NCBI GenBank assembly: GCA_001507425.1
Contig: LMAJ01000004.1
Span: 124,001 to 188,000 of the forward strand
DNA from: Flavobacteriaceae bacterium CRH
GTDB lineage: Bacteria; Bacteroidota; Bacteroidia; Flavobacteriales; Flavobacteriaceae
Length of the DNA stretch: 64,000 bases
Direction: 5' to 3'
The notes beneath the pieces are model-generated. The model saw only the letters and a program-made list of their open reading frames with translations, was not told where the DNA came from and searched no databases. Below, piece by piece: positions 18,679 through 27,208 of this stretch. The translations under genes and the position numbers were made by a program. Within the stretch, counting starts at the first letter, position 1. Every line of letters starts with the position of its first letter.

Positions 18679-21600
18679 ATGAAACATTATTACAGATTGC
18701 TTTTATTGTTACTGTTTCCCTTACTCGCGTCAGCACAACCGGCTCACGGAAAAAAAGTAGTAGGGTACTATGCGCAATGGTCTATTTATGCCCGGGATTT
18801 CAACGTTCCGAAAATAGATGGAAGTAAAATCACGCATTTGAATTATTCTTTTTATGGGACAACTTTTGATCCTGCCCATCCGGAGAATACTAAACTATTA
18901 TGTTTAGATACCTATGCTGATTTTGAGCATATGGAAGGCGGAATTCCGTGGGATGCTCCGGTAAAAGGAAATTTTTATGACTTGAAGAAGTTGAAAGAAA
19001 AGTATCCACACTTAAAAATCTTAATTTCTGTTGGAGGATGGACAAAAGGTCAGGATCTTTCTCCAATTGCAGCAAGTCCTGTTGCAAGAGCCGCTTTGGC
19101 TGCAGATATGGCAAACTTTATTGTAACCTATCCTTTTATTGATGGATTTGACATCGACTGGGAATATCCTCTTTCCGGAGGAACAGATGGTACAGAAGTT
19201 ATCAATGGAGCTCCAATTCCTCCACAAAAATACAGCCCGGACGACAATAAAAATTTAGTGTATTTATTGAAAGCAATGCGTCAGGCAATGCCAAATAAAT
19301 TAATCTCTATTGCTGCCGGAAACAATGTTCGAAAAGTGGCTTCTCAATATTTAGGACCAACAAACAGAGCACAATACGGAATGACAGAAGATATTTCGAC
19401 GTATTGTGATTATATCACTTATTTCGGATATGATTTTGGTGGAAACTGGTATGACAAAACATGCTACAATGCTCCTTTATACGCAAGTGGAAACACAAAC
19501 GATCCGCTTTACGGCGCAACTCAATCAGAATCATTGGACGAATTAACAAATCAGTATTTGAATGTTGTTGGTTTTCCTGCGAATAAATTAATCATGGGAT
19601 TGCCTTTTTATGGAAAAAAATTCGATAATGTTGCTACTAATTCCACAAACGGATTATTTGTTGCTGCACCAAGATATGTAGTTTCAGGATGTACAAATCC
19701 ACAAAATCCAACAGGAACCTGGGATGGTCCCGCAGCTTGTGAAAAATCAGGAAGTATCGAAATTTGCGATTTAGTCGGAAATCCGGTTACCAATTCACAC
19801 GCTTACTTAGATCCAAGTACCATGCAGGTTACACCAGCTGCAGCTTCTGCAGGATGGGTACGCTATTTTGACAATACAACAAAAGTTCCTTATTTATACA
19901 ATGCTACTTTAAAACAGTTTATCTCTTATGAAGATAAGCAATCAATGGATTTAAAAGTACAATATATTAAATCAAGAAATCTTGCCGGAGGAATGGTTTG
20001 GGAATTATCTCAGGATACCAGAGGTTCAATTCCTAATGCCTTATTAACTCAGGTAGATACTTCATTCGGAAGTGTTGTTCCGGGAACAGTAAGTATTTCA
20101 GGTTCTGTAAAAAACGGATCAGCTTTGATTCCGGATGTTACTGTCGAATTACGTAATTCAAGCAACGTAGTATTGCAAACAGTAGTTTCTACAGGCGGTA
20201 ATTTTACATTCAGCAATTTGACTTCGGGACAAAATTATATACTTACAGCTTTAAAAGCGACGTATACTTTTACTCCGGTAACTTTAACCAATGTTACAGT
20301 GAATCAAACTGCCGTTGTAATTAATGGAACACAGCAAACTTACACCGTTAGCGGAACAGTTCTTAACGGAGCAACTCCAGTTTCAGGCGTTACAGTTTCT
20401 GCAGTTTCAGGAAGTACTACATTAACTGCCGTTTCTAATGCAAGCGGTGTTTACAGCATTGCAGGTTTAGGAGCAGGTCTTAACTTTACTGTTACAGCTG
20501 CAAAAACAGGATTCTCATATACGCCAACTTCAACAGTTTATAATGCAATTGATGCCAATAAAACGTTGAATTTTGCTCAGGGTGCAGCAGTTGTAAATTA
20601 CACAGTAAGCGGAACGGTTCTAAACGGAACAACTCCAGTTTCTGGCGTAACAGTTACAGCAGCCTCTACAGCAGGAAATATCACAGCGGTTACCAATTCA
20701 AGCGGAGCATATACACTTACTTTAGTTTCAGGCGGAAATTATACCGTAACGGCAGCTTTAGCAGGACAAACGTATACTCCGGCTTCAACAGTTTATACGA
20801 ATCTAACGGCAAACAAAACATTAAACTTTACGCAAGATGTTATTGTAGTTCCTTCAAGTAAAATTAGCGGAACAGTTAAAAATGGATCAACTCCGGTTTC
20901 TGGTGCAAAAGTAGAAATCGTTTTACCTTGGACAGATAGTACACACAACTGGAAAAGCGTACTTGCAACAACAGATGCACAAGGAAAATACAGTTTTGAT
21001 AATGCAGTTGTAGCAGGTTATACAACCGTTACAAGTTTAAAACTAAACTCTTGGGAGAATGGAGAAACAGCTTATTTTCCAAATAATCTGGCAAACTTTG
21101 CTGTTCCTGCAAATCCAACAACTTACAATTTCAATACAAGTTCTACCGCAAAATCAGCACTAGCTGCCGCAAACTTAATTAGCGGAACCGTTAAAAATGG
21201 AACAACTCCGGTTGCAGGAGCAAAAGTAGAAATCGTTTTACCTTGGACAGACAATACACATAACTGGAAAAGTGTTCTGGCAACAACAGATGCATCAGGA
21301 AATTATACTTTCGATAATTCAGTTGTAGCAGGTTATTCACAAATTTTAAGTTTGAAATTAAATTCATGGGAAAATGGTGAATTAACTTATTATCCAAATA
21401 ACTTAGCCAACTTTGCAGTTCCAACAACTGCAACGGTTTATGATTTTAATAGACAAGCGGTTGTTGCGACTAAACCAGTCGTTACCATTACAGCGCCAAC
21501 GGCTTCGGCGATTGCTATAAATTTAGGATCAGCAATTAATTTTGTTGCAAGTGTTGGATTAAGTGCTGCTGATGCCACTACAATCTCATCTGTTGTATTT

Positions 21601-23415
21601 AGTTTAGATGGACAAAGCCTAAGTGCTACCAATTCTTCGGGAACTTATACATCGGTTTGGACACCAGCAGCAAATCAGTTTTCACTTTCTCATACGTTAA
21701 CTGTTACGGCTACTGCATCAAACGGAACAACAGATTCAAAAACATATAGTTTTACATTAAGTTGTTCAGGTGCAAACTGCCCAAATTCATTGCCGGTAAT
21801 TACTTGGAATTCACCATCGAATACTACTGTAAACCAAAGTTCTTTCCAGGTTGTGCCAATTTCAGTTACAGCTGTTGATAGTAACGGGTCAGTTTCAGGT
21901 GTTACCATTACAATAAACGGAGGTACATTTAACATGACAGCAGGTACAAATAATACTTATACGTATAATTTTACACCATCTGCTTATCAGGATTATCCGG
22001 TTGTAATCAAAGCGACTGATAATCAATCTGGTGTAACGACATTAAATAATACCATTAAAATTGCTGCGGTGAGTACCAATAGATTTATTCCGCTTCCATC
22101 TAAAATTATTTTAGGATACGCACATTCCTGGGAAAATGCTGGTGCTCCATTTTTATATTTTTCTCAAATGGTAGGAAGTAAGTTTAATGTAGTTGATTAT
22201 TCTTTCGTAGAAACCGTTAATCGTGATGGTTATACACCAGTATTAACTACAAATGACACTAGATATCTGACCAATGGAGTTTTCAATAAGCAATTGTTGA
22301 AAAATGATATAAAATCCTTAAGAGATAGCGGTGTTCCGGTTATTGTTTCTATTGGAGGTCAAAATGGTCATGTTGTTTTAGACAATGTAGCTCAAAAAAA
22401 TATTTTTGTTAATGGTCTGAAAGCAATTATTGATGAGTATCAATTTGATGGAGTTGATATTGATTTTGAAGGTGGATCGATGAATTTTAATGCAGGAGGT
22501 TTAAGAGATATTTCTTATGCGGGTATTTCTGCTTATCCAAGATTAAAAAACGTAGTAGATGCTTTCAAAGAATTAAAAGCGTACTATGGCCCAGGATTTT
22601 TATTAACTGCAGCTCCGGAAACACAATACGTACAAGGAGGATATTCTACCTACACGGATACTTTTGGTTCCTTCCTGCCAATCATTCAAAACTTGCGTAA
22701 TGATTTGGATTTGTTAGCTGTACAATTGTATAATACAGGAGGAGAAAACGGATTAGATGGTCAATATTATGGTTCAGCTAAGAAAGCAAACATGGTAACA
22801 GCCTTAACTGATATGGTGATAAAAGGGTATAACATTGCTACAACGGGAATGCATTTTGATGGTTTACCGGCCTCAAAAGTTCTTATTGCATTACCAGCTT
22901 GTCCAAGTGCAGCAGGCAGTGGTTATTTAACACCGGCAGAAGGAATTAGTGCTATGCATTATTTAAGAACCGGAACCACTTTTACAGGAAGAACATACAC
23001 TATGCAGGCAGGCGGACCATATCCTTCTTTAAGAGGTTTAATGACTTGGTCTGTAAACTGGGATGCATCTTCTTGTGGTAATTCATCTGAATTGTCTAAA
23101 GCGTATGCCACTTATTTCGCTTCGCAGTCTGCAGCAAAAACATTATCTCTGGACAAAATCGAAGTTAAAAGTAGTACTACAGTAGCTTATTTTAAAAACA
23201 GTTCATTATCAGTTACAAATGAAACTGAAGATATTGCTCAGGTTGATGTATTCAACACTATTGGGCAGGTTTTAGTAAGTCATAGAAATGTTCAGAATAA
23301 TAAAGAAGTACTGCTTCAAAATCCTAATTTCTCAACAAAGCAAATGTTTATAGTTGTAGTAACAGATAAAGCAGGAAATAAAAAATCATTCAAAGTAATC
23401 AACTTTTTAAACTAG
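18679..23415 (+). CDS. chiA: ChiA-type secreted chitinase with two GH18 domains and a T9SS sorting domain
   Basis: This 1578-residue multidomain enzyme degrades crystalline chitin outside the cell. After the signal peptide (to about 20) comes the first GH18 barrel, with SVGG at 117-120 and DGFDIDWE at 155-162 (catalytic E162). Residues ~470-950 are beta-sandwich repeats, including two near-identical 105-residue units (from I729 and I834). An Ig-like stretch leads to the second GH18 barrel, with FDGVDIDFE at 1256-1264 (catalytic E1264). The last ~90 residues form a type A T9SS sorting domain ending in SFKVINFLN. Length and layout match ChiA of F. johnsoniae as I remember it. There the two barrels act as exo- and endo-enzymes. 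Confidence 0.96.
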   Translation: MKHYYRLLLLLLFPLLASAQPAHGKKVVGYYAQWSIYARDFNVPKIDGSKITHLNYSFYGTTFDPAHPENTKLLCLDTYADFEHMEGGIPWDAPVKGNFYDLKKLKEKYPHLKILISVGGWTKGQDLSPIAASPVARAALAADMANFIVTYPFIDGFDIDWEYPLSGGTDGTEVINGAPIPPQKYSPDDNKNLVYLLKAMRQAMPNKLISIAAGNNVRKVASQYLGPTNRAQYGMTEDISTYCDYITYFGYDFGGNWYDKTCYNAPLYASGNTNDPLYGATQSESLDELTNQYLNVVGFPANKLIMGLPFYGKKFDNVATNSTNGLFVAAPRYVVSGCTNPQNPTGTWDGPAACEKSGSIEICDLVGNPVTNSHAYLDPSTMQVTPAAASAGWVRYFDNTTKVPYLYNATLKQFISYEDKQSMDLKVQYIKSRNLAGGMVWELSQDTRGSIPNALLTQVDTSFGSVVPGTVSISGSVKNGSALIPDVTVELRNSSNVVLQTVVSTGGNFTFSNLTSGQNYILTALKATYTFTPVTLTNVTVNQTAVVINGTQQTYTVSGTVLNGATPVSGVTVSAVSGSTTLTAVSNASGVYSIAGLGAGLNFTVTAAKTGFSYTPTSTVYNAIDANKTLNFAQGAAVVNYTVSGTVLNGTTPVSGVTVTAASTAGNITAVTNSSGAYTLTLVSGGNYTVTAALAGQTYTPASTVYTNLTANKTLNFTQDVIVVPSSKISGTVKNGSTPVSGAKVEIVLPWTDSTHNWKSVLATTDAQGKYSFDNAVVAGYTTVTSLKLNSWENGETAYFPNNLANFAVPANPTTYNFNTSSTAKSALAAANLISGTVKNGTTPVAGAKVEIVLPWTDNTHNWKSVLATTDASGNYTFDNSVVAGYSQILSLKLNSWENGELTYYPNNLANFAVPTTATVYDFNRQAVVATKPVVTITAPTASAIAINLGSAINFVASVGLSAADATTISSVVFSLDGQSLSATNSSGTYTSVWTPAANQFSLSHTLTVTATASNGTTDSKTYSFTLSCSGANCPNSLPVITWNSPSNTTVNQSSFQVVPISVTAVDSNGSVSGVTITINGGTFNMTAGTNNTYTYNFTPSAYQDYPVVIKATDNQSGVTTLNNTIKIAAVSTNRFIPLPSKIILGYAHSWENAGAPFLYFSQMVGSKFNVVDYSFVETVNRDGYTPVLTTNDTRYLTNGVFNKQLLKNDIKSLRDSGVPVIVSIGGQNGHVVLDNVAQKNIFVNGLKAIIDEYQFDGVDIDFEGGSMNFNAGGLRDISYAGISAYPRLKNVVDAFKELKAYYGPGFLLTAAPETQYVQGGYSTYTDTFGSFLPIIQNLRNDLDLLAVQLYNTGGENGLDGQYYGSAKKANMVTALTDMVIKGYNIATTGMHFDGLPASKVLIALPACPSAAGSGYLTPAEGISAMHYLRTGTTFTGRTYTMQAGGPYPSLRGLMTWSVNWDASSCGNSSELSKAYATYFASQSAAKTLSLDKIEVKSSTTVAYFKNSSLSVTNETEDIAQVDVFNTIGQVLVSHRNVQNNKEVLLQNPNFSTKQMFIVVVTDKAGNKKSFKVINFLN
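20863..21462 (+). repeat. tandem 315-bp intragenic repeat in chiA
   Basis: The unit starting at codon 729 (20863) is repeated from codon 834 (21178). Both encode SGTVKNG, GAKVEIVLPWTD, NWKSVLATTDA, SLKLNSWENGE and PNNLANFAVP with few differences. Nucleotide identity is high, which suggests a recent duplication or gene conversion. Confidence 0.85.
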
Positions 23416-23519: not shown

Positions 23520-23597
23520 TTCAGGTGATTTGTTATTTGGTTTTCACCTGAAGGAGAGCATTATGAACCTGGCAATTTTATTGCCAGGTTTTTTTTT
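23520..23597 (+). terminator. tandem hairpin terminator after chiA
   Basis: A first stem, TTCAGGTGA/TCACCTGAA (23520-23528, 23544-23552), is followed by AACCTGGCAAT (23566-23576) with ATTGCCAGGTT (23580-23590) and nine T residues. It is a strong intrinsic terminator on the plus strand only. Confidence 0.88.
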
Positions 23598-23793
23598 AAT
23601 GCATACCGCTCAATGAAAAATTGGCAGAACAAGTTCCAAAACCAATTACAAAAGCTATTACGGAATATAAAATAATTTTTAAAGATTTGTTTTTATTGTC
23701 AGATATAAAAATCAAACGGCAAACGCCAAATAAAAAAGTAAAAACACTTATTAAAGTGGTCATACCGCCAATTAAAACTAAAAATTCTCCCAT
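23596..23793 (-). CDS. small membrane protein B, paralogue of its upstream neighbour
   Basis: This 65-residue protein has two hydrophobic helices (about 4-27 and 39-55) joined by a charged turn, ISDNKNKSLK. The segment VIAFVIGFGTC (about 44-54) is nearly the same as in the 57-residue protein encoded just upstream, so the two arose by duplication. It is the last gene of a four-gene minus-strand operon, 32 bp after its twin. Function unknown; a subunit or anchor for the radical SAM enzyme is possible. Confidence 0.65.
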   Translation of the reverse strand: MGEFLVLIGGMTTLISVFTFLFGVCRLIFISDNKNKSLKIILYSVIAFVIGFGTCSANFSLSGMH

Positions 23794-23825
23794 ATCTTAT
23801 TTTTGTTTCATTTTTAAATCAAAAA

Positions 23826-23999
23826 TCACAAATTGCTTATAATTACAACGCAAGTTCCAAATCCAATAACAGCAATAATTATAGGAATCAGTAAAAGTCT
23901 TAAATAAAATTTTTTGTTGTCCTGGGCAAAAATTAAACCACCAAGGCCAATTATAAACATCATTACCAAAATAAAACCAAAAAACATTAAAAGCTCCAT
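23826..23999 (-). CDS. small membrane protein A
   Basis: This 57-residue protein begins MELLMFFGFILVMMF. It has two predicted helices separated by FAQDNKKFYLR, and the second helix ends IIIAVIGFGTC. The pattern of aspartate-asparagine-lysine turn, second helix and VIGFGTC is shared with the next gene downstream. Translation starts 19 bp after the radical SAM gene ends, so co-expression is very likely. No signal peptide or lipobox. Function unknown. Confidence 0.65.
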   Translation of the reverse strand: MELLMFFGFILVMMFIIGLGGLIFAQDNKKFYLRLLLIPIIIAVIGFGTCVVIISNL

Positions 24000-24018
24000 A
24001 TCTTAATAGGTTAGTAAA

Positions 24019-25407
24019 TTAAACATTCAGTTTTTCTCTTATTTGATCAATTTTATTATCTCTGTAAAACAAATTCATGGTTTCAAAAGGAATAATTTTC
24101 ATTTTGTCGCTTACAATGTGTACACATGATTTTTTAACAGCCCTCACATCAAAATCGTGAGCATCCATAAAATTCATAATCAGGATTCGAAATAAGTTAT
24201 TGTAGTTTAAGGTATCTGATTGAACTCTGGGTAAACAACACATGAGTTCATTAAATTCGCCTTCTGCACAATCAACAGAAATACCTGTACTAAATAAATT
24301 CAGCATATGGGTTTTTAGTTTTTCGTCATGCTCAAAAACTATTGTGTTCTTAGAGTTATTTAATAAATCTTCCGGATTTATCAAATGTGTCATCGGGAAA
24401 ACTTCTCCGTCAATTTTCAAGGCATAGGCCATGCACAAAGCATCAGGATTACAAGGAACCGGAATTAAATCTTCTGGAGTAAAAACAGGATATTGTTCGT
24501 AAATTTTTCTGCGTACTTCCGTTAATGTTATCCTTCCGGAAATATCATCGTAATTGTCATTTCGGCCGGCAACCTGTGTAGGCTGAAAAGTAACACCACG
24601 CACGCATTTTTGCTGTAACGCATATTCAATTATCTGACCAATTTCATCATCATTTTGCCCTTTTTGAAGCGTGATTACCAATGTGGTCGAAATATTAAAT
24701 TGATTCAAATTTTCGATAGCTTTTTTACGCACCTCAGTTAAATCTTCTCCTCGCAATTTTTCAAGTACTTCAGGTTTAAAACTGTCAAATTGCAGGTAAA
24801 TTTCAAAATCAGGCATATAACTCGCCAGCGTTTCTACAAATTTAATGTCTTTTGCAATTCTAATACCATTGGTATTGACCATTAAGTGTTTGATAGGTTT
24901 ACTTTTGGCAATATCTAAAATTTTAAAAAATTCCGGATGCACGGTTGGTTCTCCCCCGGAAATCTGAACGACATCCGGCTCGCCTTCGTTTGCTACAACA
25001 GTATCAAACATTTTTTCAATTTCTTCTAAAGTTCGGTGTCTTCCGTAATTTGGAGCTGAACTGGCATAACAAGTAGGGCAGGCGAGATTACAACGATCTG
25101 TAACTTCTACAATTGTTAAACACGAATGCTGTTCATGGTCTGTACACAATCCGCAGTCATAAGGACAGCCATAATGCACTTTTGTGTTGAATTTTAATGG
25201 CATTTCAGACTGTTTATTGTAATTACGCAATTGCTTGTAATAATTAACGTCATCAGCAATCATAGACTTTAATTCGCCATGGGTTTTACAATATTTATGC
25301 ATCCAGACCTTATCATCCTGAAATACGATTTTGGTGTCTACAAGTGCTAAACAATGGTGACATAAACTTTTAGTATAATCGTAAAAAATATAATCGCGCG
25401 TTTTCAT
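24019..25407 (-). CDS. radical SAM enzyme of the tetraether-synthase (Tes)-like family
   Basis: This 462-residue protein starts with a zinc-ribbon-like segment (C16, C19, C40, H43 in SLCHHCLAL and KYCKTHGE). Next is a second cysteine cluster, CPYDCGLC (C81, C85, C88), then the radical SAM motif CNLACPTC (C106, C110, C113), the GGEP motif near 156 and a C-terminal cysteine-rich part (MCCLPR). This order is the known layout of the Tes/GDGT-MAS and bacterial membrane-spanning-lipid synthase family, which joins unreactive lipid carbons. It lies 30 bp after an Lgt-like gene, which also points to lipid substrates. The actual substrate is unknown, and homologues include unrelated methylases. Confidence 0.82.
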   Translation of the reverse strand: MKTRDYIFYDYTKSLCHHCLALVDTKIVFQDDKVWMHKYCKTHGELKSMIADDVNYYKQLRNYNKQSEMPLKFNTKVHYGCPYDCGLCTDHEQHSCLTIVEVTDRCNLACPTCYASSAPNYGRHRTLEEIEKMFDTVVANEGEPDVVQISGGEPTVHPEFFKILDIAKSKPIKHLMVNTNGIRIAKDIKFVETLASYMPDFEIYLQFDSFKPEVLEKLRGEDLTEVRKKAIENLNQFNISTTLVITLQKGQNDDEIGQIIEYALQQKCVRGVTFQPTQVAGRNDNYDDISGRITLTEVRRKIYEQYPVFTPEDLIPVPCNPDALCMAYALKIDGEVFPMTHLINPEDLLNNSKNTIVFEHDEKLKTHMLNLFSTGISVDCAEGEFNELMCCLPRVQSDTLNYNNLFRILIMNFMDAHDFDVRAVKKSCVHIVSDKMKIIPFETMNLFYRDNKIDQIREKLNV

Positions 25408-25437
25408 TAGAAATTTTTTAAGGTGTAAAGTAAACTT

Positions 25438-26178
25438 TTATTTGTTTTTATAAGCGGTTATTCTGCAAAGAAACTTCCGGTAATATAGGAAGATGAAGAG
25501 CGAACTCCATTGTATACTGCTCAAATTCAGGAATAATGGTTTGTAAGGTTTTAGGAATTCGACTAAAAACCGAAACAGGAAATATAAAACCATAAAAAGC
25601 TTAAATCGATCGCCGTTAAGCATAGGTTTATTTTTTATATTTTGATAAAAGATAAAAAGCAAAATCATAAATACCATTTCATACAATGCTACAGGATGTC
25701 TTTGTAGCCCGTCGCCTAAATTCATTCCTGTAATAAAGGTAGTTTCATTACCAAATGTAGGTTCGGCAATTCCCATAGAAAAACAGCCAATCCTGCCAAC
25801 AAAGAGCGCTACTATGATTGGAATTACATATAGGTCTCCTGAAGCTATTTTTACGCCAATAATTTTTTTGATTATTTCAACACCCAATAATCCGCCCAGA
25901 AAACCTCCCGCAACAGTTTTATTTTGATAAAAAGTTAGAAAAGTTTGATTGCTAATCGCAGCAGGATCTTCTAATAAAGCTATTATTCTCGACCCTAATA
26001 ATGCGCCAATCATGGCACCAATCATAATAATTAAACGATTAGTATCGGATATGGGATCTTGTGTTCTTTTTTTAAGAAAATAATAAATCCTGATACCAAT
26101 AAAGAAAGCTAAAGTTTCAAATATGGAATGCCAATAAAAAGTTTTTTCAAAGATTTCAAATTGAAAAGGAAATGTCAT
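25438..26178 (-). CDS. divergent Lgt-like (prolipoprotein diacylglyceryl transferase family) membrane protein
   Basis: This 246-residue protein has about seven transmembrane segments. Lgt-family hallmarks are GGFLGGLLG (about 91-99), GRIGCFSMG near 129-137, HPVALYE near 161-167 and a C-terminal FRFLVEFLKPY. The GRxGN(F)xNGE signature of true Lgt is altered: the two asparagines are replaced by C and M, so normal lipoprotein acylation is doubtful. It is the first gene of the operon with the radical SAM enzyme and the twin small proteins. A transferase acting on phospholipid head groups or glycerol is a reasonable guess. Confidence 0.78.
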   Translation of the reverse strand: MTFPFQFEIFEKTFYWHSIFETLAFFIGIRIYYFLKKRTQDPISDTNRLIIMIGAMIGALLGSRIIALLEDPAAISNQTFLTFYQNKTVAGGFLGGLLGVEIIKKIIGVKIASGDLYVIPIIVALFVGRIGCFSMGIAEPTFGNETTFITGMNLGDGLQRHPVALYEMVFMILLFIFYQNIKNKPMLNGDRFKLFMVLYFLFRFLVEFLKPYKPLFLNLSSIQWSSLFIFLYYRKFLCRITAYKNK

Positions 26179-26408: not shown

Positions 26409-26434
26409 AATCCCAATTATTGCATCAAAATTTC

Positions 26435-27208
26435 ATGAAGAAATCAATCACTCTTATACTATTATTTTTTATTTTCACTTCCTGCAATAGTCAGACTAAA
26501 TACAGCAAACCAGAAGTCGATCCCATTCTAATTCAAAATAAATACAGTGATTGGTGGAATTATCAAAGCAAAAACATCATGCTTTCGAGAGATTTTGTGG
26601 CGCTTGATCTTCTTTCAAAAGAAATTTCAAAAGAGCAATTTCTAAACGAACTGGTAAACGGAAATTACATTCCAATCCGATTAAAATCTGAAGATTCTAT
26701 TTATTACTACAAGTTGTTTAAAATTCAGCCAAAATCAGATACCAGTATAAAAGCAACCATAAATCAGGAAGCTTTTGATGCAGTAAAGAATTTTGAAATG
26801 GAAGGAAAGCCTTTTCCTGAATTCTCTTTTAAAGATTTAGACGGAAATTTAGTTTCAAACGAATCTATGAAAGGAAAAATCATCGTTATAAAATGCTGGT
26901 ACATTCATTGCGCCGCGTGCATCAAAGAATTTCCTGAAGTAAATCAATTGGTTGAAAAATACAAAGACCGAAAAGATATTGTCTTTTTAAGTTTGTCCGA
27001 AGATACGCCCGACCAATTAAAAACATTTCTGGCAAGAAAACCACTTTCATATTCAGTCATTCCAAACATGAAAATTTACATGAACGAAACCTTGCAGCTG
27101 AATGCTTTTCCAACGCATTTTATTCTCAATATAGAAGGTATGATTGCTAAAGTTTTACCTAATTATAGAAGTTTAGAAGTGGCTTTGGAGAAGGAAAGCA
27201 AACTGTAG
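26435..27208 (+). CDS. thioredoxin-like (TlpA/redoxin family) lipoprotein
   Basis: This 257-residue envelope protein has a lipobox with C17 (FFIFTSC) and a C-terminal thioredoxin fold. The redox motif is CAAC (C159, C162), with the cis-proline segment FPTHF near 226. The N-terminal ~120 residues are a poorly conserved extension. A TTG at 26420 could extend the frame by five residues. I chose the ATG at 26435 because it begins a standard lipoprotein signal (MKKSITLILL) and sits at the right distance from the -7 element. Disulfide reduction in the periplasm is likely; the partner is unknown. Confidence 0.85.
   Translation: MKKSITLILLFFIFTSCNSQTKYSKPEVDPILIQNKYSDWWNYQSKNIMLSRDFVALDLLSKEISKEQFLNELVNGNYIPIRLKSEDSIYYYKLFKIQPKSDTSIKATINQEAFDAVKNFEMEGKPFPEFSFKDLDGNLVSNESMKGKIIVIKCWYIHCAACIKEFPEVNQLVEKYKDRKDIVFLSLSEDTPDQLKTFLARKPLSYSVIPNMKIYMNETLQLNAFPTHFILNIEGMIAKVLPNYRSLEVALEKESKL

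What the first reader, a model, noticed from the sequence alone, without database searches (positions are those of the whole stretch)
23596..26178. Four-gene operon joining an Lgt-like protein, a Tes-like radical SAM enzyme and twin tiny membrane proteins
Seen: four minus-strand genes with gaps of 30, 19 and 32 bp. The radical SAM protein has an N-terminal zinc-ribbon pattern, CPYDCGLC, then CNLACPTC, which is the layout of the tetraether/membrane-spanning lipid synthase family. The first gene belongs to the Lgt family but has lost the signature asparagines. Known: Tes enzymes join lipid tails, and Lgt moves diacylglyceryl groups. Inference: the operon makes or attaches an unusual membrane lipid, and the two tiny proteins are subunits or lipid-presenting partners. 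I know of no description of this set.
Basis: partly seen in the sequence, partly recalled or inferred. Interest (0 to 1): 0.78.

Follow-up and report, generated by a model that had tools for sequence, protein, structure and literature searches.

The report
Three-part membrane lipid-modification gene set
Many soil and water bacteria carry an undescribed set of three partner genes - a lipid-attaching enzyme, a radical enzyme related to those that weld lipid tails together, and tiny membrane proteins ending in a conserved cysteine - that probably makes an unusual protein-linked or tail-modified membrane lipid.

Summary
The four genes are real and where stated. They are one copy of a conserved three-part module: an Lgt-family membrane enzyme, a Tes-type radical SAM (rSAM) enzyme, and tiny 2-3-TM proteins sharing a C-terminal G-x-[G/S]-x-C motif. 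Of 395 Bacteroidia genomes, 25 have the rSAM and all 25 also have the Lgt-like gene, in one on another contig. The Lgt-like gene lies in the fetched stretch in 26 of 27 and 71 of 80 loci. A small TM gene follows the rSAM in 73 of 77 named loci; 71 of 73 have the motif, against 6 of 55 control ORFs. The set also occurs, reordered, on two Mycobacterium plasmids and in Nonomuraea. The Lgt-like proteins keep Lgt's R143/R239 equivalents but have N146C and no His at position 103. The rSAM keeps Tes cofactor ligands but misses the Tes and TrsS cut-offs. The Cys is predicted at the periplasmic end of the last helix, the side on which Lgt acts. Best reading: the Lgt-like enzyme lipidates the tiny proteins and the rSAM modifies alkyl tails. 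Conservation is shown; chemistry is inferred.

The parts
25438..26178 (-). Lgt-like integral membrane enzyme (246 aa): predicted glycerolipid transferase with altered acceptor site
   Evidence: Pfam LGT 6e-25; the only PDB fold match with E<0.001 is E. coli Lgt 5azb; below the TIGR00544 cut-off; in the rSAM-linked Lgt group
25783..25797 (-). GRIGC: Lgt signature core with R129 (=R143) kept and N146 replaced by Cys132
   Evidence: R and C in 71 of 72 rows, the other row (L073) an incomplete ORF with a gap
25903..25917 (-). TVAGG: HGGL-motif equivalent, His103 replaced
   Evidence: V/M/A/I/L in 71 of 72 rows, the other (L094) a gap from an incomplete ORF; Thr in the distant L180
24019..25407 (-). 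Tes-type radical SAM enzyme (462 aa)
   Evidence: relatives at 66-84% identity in 24 other Bacteroidia genomes
25279..25362 (-). C16-X2-C19-X20-C40-X2-H43, rubredoxin-type iron site
   Evidence: spacing equals C9X2C12X20C33X2H36 of GDGT-MAS (PMC9433317); C40 and H43 in 28 of 28, C16 and C19 in 27 of 28 with one gap; H43 is Cys in the distant L182
25144..25167 (-). CPYDCGLC, [Fe4S4]N ligands
   Evidence: 28 of 28; absent from the actinobacterial-type relatives
25069..25092 (-). CNLACPTC, radical SAM CX3CX2C
   Evidence: Cys in 28 of 28
24175..24177 (-). Met411, aligned with the labile Met439 cluster ligand of GDGT-MAS
   Evidence: Thr or Lys in the distant relatives
24115..24129 (-). SCVHI: C428, likely [Fe4S4]C ligand; I431 stands where Tes has Tyr459
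23826..23999 (-). tiny membrane protein 1 (57 aa, two predicted TM, GFGTC near the C terminus)
23850..23864 (-). GFGTC motif of tiny protein 1 (Cys50)
23596..23793 (-). tiny membrane protein 2 (65 aa, two predicted TM, GFGTC near the C terminus, C-terminal His)
23629..23643 (-). GFGTC motif of tiny protein 2 (Cys55)
   Evidence: Cys is the only invariant column among 20 tiny proteins
23565..23591 (.). hairpin between the operon end and the convergent gene; scored as terminator-like on + only, not above the shuffled expectation (1 found, 1.8 expected)

Best explanation
The operon encodes a lipid-modification module with a dedicated small membrane-protein acceptor. Inferred steps: (1) tiny 2-3-TM proteins insert with the loop before the last helix in the cytoplasm and their conserved Cys at the periplasmic end of that helix; (2) the Lgt-like enzyme, which keeps Lgt's lipid-binding arginines but has lost the His proposed to bind the lipobox, transfers a glycerolipid (diacylglyceryl or similar) to that Cys; (3) the Tes-type radical SAM enzyme, on the cytoplasmic side, acts on saturated alkyl tails of the same lipid (C-C coupling or a related radical modification), before or after the transfer. 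The product would be a small membrane protein, or a carrier intermediate, bearing an unusual radical-modified lipid. Shown: the parts, their conservation, co-occurrence, invariant residues and Tes-like cofactor ligands. Inferred: topology, acceptor role, donor lipid and reaction.
For: Co-occurrence: rSAM in 25 of 395 Bacteroidia genomes, own included; Lgt-like in 26 of the same 395, including all 25. Linkage: Lgt-like in the fetched stretch in 26 of 27 and 71 of 80 loci, 61 of these 71 overlapping by under 100 nt or within 150 nt. Presence without adjacency: rSAM, Lgt-like and tiny genes on three contigs each in G306 and G699; of 8 further genomes with none in the stretch, 6 have a copy of 288-339 bits elsewhere, one of them 3.9 kb upstream. 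Across phyla: M. avium and M. branderi plasmids have lgt-like, two tiny Cys proteins, rSAM; Nonomuraea has tiny, lgt-like, rSAM. Acceptor: small TM ORF after the rSAM in 73 of 77 loci, chosen by position only; 72 of 73 have a Cys in the last 35 residues (control small TM ORFs 35 of 55); [GS]x[GASP]xC in 71 of 73 (control 6 of 55); G 69 or S 3 at -4 of the last Cys; K+R 2.46 before the last helix, 0.25 after the Cys. Tiny profile: E<=1e-5 in 10 of 15 rSAM-bearing genomes not in the profile (some of them close kin of profile genomes) and 0 of 21 without rSAM. Enzymes: R143 and R239 equivalents kept, N146C and no His at 103 in the rSAM-linked Lgt group, split from 11 other Lgts at 95/97; Tes cofactor ligands kept; folds match 5azb and 7tom. 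In E. coli Lgt, R143/R239 are essential and HGGL is proposed to bind the lipobox peptide (PMC4728403, passages).
Against: No biochemistry or lipid data. The tiny motif is not a lipobox: -1 is often T, I or V and residues after the Cys are hydrophobic, whereas putative true lipoproteins of the same loci have S at -1 in 18 of 24. Y26, H103 and N146 are each essential in E. coli Lgt (PMC13251419, passages), so the Lgt-like protein could be inactive or do another transfer; and N146C is not special to it (4 of 11 other Lgts have it). Tes is a soluble Fe-S enzyme while the Lgt site faces the periplasm. No tiny gene was found beside the enzymes in L047 (G021), L049 (G294), L132 and L135, nor credibly by profile in G021, G294 and G701 (= L132) or G477. 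G076 has the Lgt-like gene with neither rSAM nor tiny hit. G700 has the rSAM but no Lgt-like hit. Actinobacterial rSAMs lack the [Fe4S4]N Cys and Met411; L175 and L180 lack Met411. Tes Tyr459 is Ile/Val here.
Confidence: 0.42

Rival explanations
1. Free-lipid pathway: the rSAM couples or otherwise modifies fatty-acyl tails of ordinary phospholipids (iso-C15 tails, recalled as common in this phylum, would give iso-diabolic-type chains), the Lgt-like enzyme moves the modified glycerolipid to a small-molecule or lipid acceptor, and the tiny proteins are non-covalent subunits that hold the soluble rSAM at the membrane.
For: Nearest solved relative is GDGT-MAS; bacterial Tes homologues have been proposed to make membrane-spanning lipids (PMC8941075, PMC11868695, passages); a few genomes with both enzymes show no recognisable tiny gene.
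Against: Does not explain why a single Cys at a fixed place is the only invariant residue of the tiny proteins.
Confidence: 0.27
2. Ribosomally made lipopeptide: the tiny proteins are precursors on which the rSAM acts directly (for example at or near the Cys) and which the Lgt-like enzyme lipidates.
For: Small, variable, often repeated genes (one copy in 42, two in 25, three in 4 and none in 9 of 80 loci by the motif search) beside a radical SAM gene; one invariant Cys.
Against: Pfam finds no SPASM domain in the rSAM at E<=1, and by fold it ranks GDGT-MAS far above the peptide maturases (1.7e-32 against 1.6e-8 for SkfB). A protease or exporter nearby was not searched for systematically.
Confidence: 0.12
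3. The tiny proteins' Cys (in part with a C-terminal His) is a metal, haem or redox ligand, and the set serves electron supply or cofactor assembly rather than lipid transfer.
For: C-terminal His in 30 of 103 distinct motif-bearing tiny proteins against 16 of 560 longer ORFs (many of the 30 are close relatives).
Against: Most tiny proteins lack the His; an Lgt-family partner would be unexplained.
Confidence: 0.1

Closest known systems
GDGT-MAS / Tes (MJ0619; PDB 7TOL/7TOM; NF045702)
   Same: Rubredoxin-type site, [Fe4S4]N Cys, CX3CX2C, a C-terminal cluster Cys and the labile Met align; closest solved structure
   Different: Tyr459 is Ile431; 276 bits against a 450-bit cut-off; linked to an Lgt-like gene and tiny TM proteins; hosts are bacteria with no tetraethers known to me (recalled)
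TrsS radical SAM (seleno)protein (NF045646)
   Same: Best curated model, full length, 320 bits
   Different: Below the 490-bit cut-off; 0 of 296 Bacteroidota-phylum genomes reach it. Seen in print only as one table row of PMC13188914 (passages; searches)
Lgt, prolipoprotein diacylglyceryl transferase (E. coli 5AZB)
   Same: Family, fold, R143, R239, E202 and G154 equivalents
   Different: No His at 103, Y26H (Tyr kept in distant L175 and L180), N146C; misses the TIGR00544 cut-off; the genome holds two canonical-type Lgts besides
M. smegmatis MSMEG_5408 and Leptospira Lgt (PMC13251419, passages)
   Same: N146C (both) and Y26H (MSMEG_5408), as reported there
   Different: Genomic neighbourhood not examined here; Leptospira Lgt partly complements E. 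coli, so N146C alone does not mean loss of activity
DltX (search listing only; role as covalent acyl relay recalled)
   Same: Tiny operon-encoded TM protein with a functional C-terminal motif (recalled)
   Different: Residue here is a Cys and the partner an Lgt-type, not an MBOAT, enzyme; no sequence relation tested

Membership tests
Tes / GDGT-MAS | Rubredoxin-type C-X2-C-X20-C-X2-H | tested here: met
   against PMC9433317
Tes / GDGT-MAS | [Fe4S4]N Cys3 + His and radical SAM CX3CX2C | tested here: met
   28 of 28; which His (91 or 94) is the ligand is not settled
Tes / GDGT-MAS | C-terminal cluster Cys and labile Met439 | tested here: met
   By alignment only: C428 and M411; the other ligands not assigned
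Tes / GDGT-MAS | Tyr459, conserved in 1,000 archaeal homologues | tested here: not met
   I431; the paper reports that Y459F and Y459L stay active
Tes / GDGT-MAS | NF045702 curated cut-off (450 bits) | tested here: not met
   276.3 bits
Tes / GDGT-MAS | Tail-to-tail C-C coupling of lipid | not testable with these tools
   needs enzyme assay or lipid MS
TrsS | NF045646 curated cut-off (490 bits) | tested here: not met
   320 bits
Lgt | Pfam LGT domain and fold | tested here: met
   88.4 bits against 24.9; 5azb E 2.1e-5
Lgt | R143 and R239 | tested here: met
   R129 and R203 in 71 of 72, one gap
Lgt | H103 (or Y/W), Y26, N146 | tested here: not met
   V/M/A/I/L, H and C, each in 71 of 72 with one gap
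Lgt | Transfers diacylglyceryl to a lipobox Cys | not testable with these tools
   needs assay
Lipoprotein (type II signal) | N-terminal signal peptide with lipobox ending G/A/S-C | tested here: not met
   The Cys lies at the end of the last helix near the C terminus; -1 is T 23, A 15, I 12, V 10, S 5 of 72
Lipoprotein (type II signal) | Cys at the periplasmic end of a helix preceded by positive charge | tested here: met
   K+R 2.46 before the helix, 0.25 after the Cys; loop above tail in 62 of 72, equal in 9, below in 1; a prediction from charge only

The most novel reading that the evidence does not exclude
The module makes a protein-bound membrane-spanning lipid in mesophilic bacteria: the Lgt-like enzyme attaches diacylglycerol to the periplasmic Cys of a tiny hairpin protein, and the Tes-type enzyme welds a tail of that lipid to a tail from the opposite leaflet, a staple that fixes the small protein across both leaflets.
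Probability: 0.1. Interest if true: 0.95.

Novelty: new variant of a known kind. Interest (0 to 1): 0.74.

Why it matters
It links two enzyme families that I found nowhere described as working together, attaches a new family of tiny Cys membrane proteins to them, and gives a culturable bacterial system (Flavobacterium, Pedobacter, Mucilaginibacter, Chitinophaga) in which to ask what bacterial Tes relatives do, a question left open in print (PMC8941075, PMC11868695, passages seen). If the tiny proteins are lipid acceptors, lipidation by the Lgt family is not limited to N-terminal signal peptides.

Tried and rejected
Considered and dropped: (a) filing the rSAM as Tes or TrsS (both cut-offs missed); (b) filing gene 1 as a spare Lgt (two canonical-type Lgts exist in the genome; the rSAM-linked group is separate); (c) naming the tiny proteins from weak hits (none over cut-off: Pfam; NCBIfam for the two window proteins only); (d) chance adjacency. 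A first alignment of the genome's other Lgts took wrong reading frames and was replaced. Weak tiny-profile hits inside 476-, 608- and 241-aa ORFs were not counted. The rSAM model is middling (mean pLDDT 68, 132 residues under 50), so only its overall fold match is used; 72 chains, mostly other radical SAM enzymes, also match it at E<=0.001.

Counting notes. The 8 genomes without a copy in the stretch are G477, G673, G696-G700 and G502; misses are G700 and G502 (whose rSAM groups with Tes). Of the 12 handles given to one (L169) was not searched for size. The tiny-profile count (10 of 15) leaves out rSAM-bearing genomes whose own proteins built the profile; misses are G257, G021, G294, G701 and G477, though G257 has a motif-bearing small ORF about 2 kb from the rSAM that the profile missed. 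The E<=1e-5 line was drawn after seeing the scores. One partial Lgt hit (L199) was left out of the 'other Lgt' rows. I had written that Y26H holds in the whole Lgt-like group; searches show Tyr in L175 and L180 and Gln in G076, and this is mended.
Full report
OBSERVATION. Four minus-strand ORFs occupy window 23596-26178 exactly as described, gaps 30, 19 and 32 nt. In a named collection the window's rSAM matches Flavobacterium sp. LC2016-13 at 100%, whose Lgt-like protein is 92% identical, so that record is a near relative rather than the same strain. Gene 1 is a Pfam LGT member (6e-25); gene 2 a radical SAM protein whose closest solved relative is the archaeal tetraether synthase GDGT-MAS (7tol, 3.9e-64); genes 3 and 4 are 57- and 65-aa hydrophobic proteins that match no Pfam or NCBIfam model over cut-off.

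CONSERVATION IN BACTEROIDIA. Of 395 sampled Bacteroidia genomes (own included), 25 have the rSAM, all at 66% identity or more, with no hit between the E 1e-30 limit and this close family; of 60 relatives (own included), 6. The same 395 searched with the Lgt-like protein give 26 genomes, which include all 25; the odd one, G076, has neither rSAM nor a tiny hit. In the 27 other-genome stretches fetched, 26 hold the Lgt-like ORF; the exception, G306, has it on another contig. Of the 71, 61 overlap by under 100 nt or lie within 150 nt, commonly overlapping by 8 or 11 nt (starts as called mechanically), which suggests translational coupling; in the window the gap is 30 nt. All 80 titles are Bacteroidota but one Limnohabitans MAG (L062), probably misbinned.

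TINY PROTEINS. Choosing only by position (first same-strand ORF of 45-160 aa with two or more hydrophobic segments starting -60 to +300 nt from the rSAM stop), 73 of 77 loci have one. Of the 73, 72 have a Cys in the last 35 residues (control small TM ORFs elsewhere in the loci 35 of 55) and 71 the motif [GS]x[GASP]xC (control 6 of 55); the one without Cys (L119) has a second copy with it. Around the last Cys: [LVI][LVI][IV]-G-[FL]-[GS]-[TAIV]-C, with G at -4 in 69 and S in 3 of 72. Cys is the only invariant column of a 20-sequence alignment at 24% mean identity. By the motif search 42 of 80 loci have one copy, 25 two, 4 three and 9 none. The stretch before the last helix averages 2.46 K+R against 0.25 after the Cys, so by the positive-inside rule the Cys faces the periplasm. 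A tiny-protein profile finds hits at E<=1e-5 in 10 of 15 rSAM-bearing genomes not used to build it, and in 0 of 21 genomes without the rSAM. In G306 and G699 (draft assemblies) rSAM, Lgt-like and tiny genes lie on three different contigs yet all are present. No tiny gene was found in the stretches L047, L049, L078, L132 and L135.

BEYOND BACTEROIDIA. Eleven more rSAM stretches from the phylum (L175-L185, some from Flavobacteriaceae) hold an Lgt-like ORF in 8 and a motif-bearing small TM ORF in 8 of 11 (L181 ends at the contig edge; L177 and L178 have their Lgt-like copy elsewhere; L176 has neither). Orders vary: lgt-rSAM-tiny (L179, L182), lgt-tiny-rSAM (L183), rSAM-ICMT-DUF4395-lgt-tiny (L175, L180). 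A plasmid search with the rSAM (10 records matched) found M. avium pS2b and M. branderi pJCM12687, each with an annotated 'prolipoprotein diacylglyceryl transferase family protein', two 'hypothetical' small TM proteins ending [GA]G[ILY]CTGLNP or VGVCTGLNP, and the rSAM at 28-31% identity; Nonomuraea has tiny, lgt-like, rSAM. The haloarchaeal stretches opened (L166, L171, L172) and M. vanbaalenii (L165) have the rSAM beside a methyltransferase and no annotated Lgt.

ENZYMES. In 72 Lgt-like sequences (window plus 71 named loci) the equivalents of E. coli R143, R239 and G154 are kept, while Y26 is His, N146 is Cys and H103 is V/M/A/I/L, each in 71 of 72 with one gap from an incomplete ORF; seven copies found by whole-genome search agree (one is the copy beside the L132 rSAM). 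Farther out, N146C and both arginines hold in all eight sequences looked at, but L175 and L180 keep Tyr26, L180 has Thr and G076 Met at 103, and G076 has Gln for Y26. Eleven other Lgts from seven of these genomes have H or Y at 103, Y or F at 26, and N (7) or C (4) at 146. In a 35-row tree the rSAM-linked proteins, actinobacterial ones and G076 included, split from those eleven at 95/97. In E. coli, R143 and R239 are essential and H103/HGGL is proposed to hold the lipobox peptide (PMC4728403, passages); Y26H with N146C is reported for MSMEG_5408, and N146C for the Leptospira Lgt, which still has some activity (PMC13251419, passages). So lipid binding looks kept and acceptor recognition changed (inference). 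The window-type rSAM keeps the rubredoxin-type ligands, [Fe4S4]N ligands, radical SAM Cys, C428 and Met411 (=Met439); Tes Tyr459 is Ile or Val in all Lgt-linked rows. Tyr459 and Met439 variants of GDGT-MAS stay active (PMC9433317, passages). Actinobacterial-type rSAMs have lost the [Fe4S4]N Cys and Met411, L175 and L180 Met411. A 29-row tree puts Lgt-linked rSAMs on one side (24 rows, 92/80, under the 95 line) and Tes, L176 and the methyltransferase-linked proteins on the other; the tool warned of long branches, and the root is a midpoint. Predicted folds match 5azb (the only PDB hit under E 0.001) and 7tom (1.7e-32).

MECHANISM. Best reading: the Lgt-like enzyme puts a glycerolipid on the periplasmic Cys of the tiny proteins and the Tes-type enzyme radically modifies or couples alkyl tails. 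The motif is not an ordinary lipobox: -1 is often T, I or V whereas putative true lipoproteins of the same loci have S at -1 in 18 of 24, and the Cys is followed by a short hydrophobic tail, so signal peptidase II cleavage is not expected (inference). Main difficulties: Lgt works in the periplasm and a Tes-type enzyme in the cytosol; three residues essential in E. coli Lgt are changed; and a few genomes show both enzymes without a recognisable tiny gene. Both enzymes of the window fall in a lineage that mixes Flavobacterium and Pedobacter (rSAM 82-88%, Lgt-like 63-70% to the Pedobacter ones) and are far from those of other Flavobacterium such as F. salmonis (68% and 51%), which suggests joint transfer.

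NOVELTY. Nine paper searches were run. The five aimed at such a set listed no paper whose title or abstract start describes it; 11 and 68 returned nothing, and the three papers of 101 were not opened. The library lacks most subscription journals and preprints. Enzyme families are known, both in variant form; the tiny family, the three-part association and its spread across two phyla appear undescribed.

Noticed in passing
L175:4986-8588; L180:3435-6941: In two distant phylum members an ICMT-family methyltransferase and a DUF4395 protein stand between the rSAM and the Lgt-like gene, hinting at extra steps in that subtype.
   Followed up: partly
L165, L166, L171, L172: Plasmid-borne Tes-like rSAMs of haloarchaea and M. 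vanbaalenii stand beside a methyltransferase gene, some near redox or sulfur-type genes (DsrE, TauE/SafE, thioredoxin, CcdA), with no annotated Lgt.
   Followed up: no
tiny proteins of L059-L138: 30 of 103 distinct motif-bearing tiny proteins end in His, against 16 of 560 ORFs of 150 aa or more; many are close relatives; unexplained.
   Followed up: partly
L195, L196, L197, L203: Some Bacteroidota genomes hold a further Lgt paralogue group with Tyr at position 103 and Cys at 146, separate from both canonical Lgt and the rSAM-linked group.
   Followed up: no
L056, L057: The window's genome has two canonical-type Lgts with HGG/HGA and RLGNF motifs.
   Followed up: no
L174 (G076:C10:163739-164461): Orphan member of the rSAM-linked Lgt group in a genome without rSAM or tiny hit.
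   Followed up: partly
L176 (G502): A Bacteroidota-phylum rSAM that groups with M. jannaschii Tes (100/98, on a long branch) and keeps the Tyr459 equivalent, without Lgt-like partner: a better bacterial Tes candidate than the window protein.
   Followed up: no
L059 against window 24019-26178: Against the nearest named record the rSAM is 100% identical but the Lgt-like protein only 92%, an uneven divergence inside one operon.
   Followed up: no
window 18679-23415 and 26420-27208: The operon lies between a convergent 1578-aa chitinase-like gene and a divergent lipoprotein-type thioredoxin-like gene; names are from reading the sequence, not from a search.
   Followed up: no
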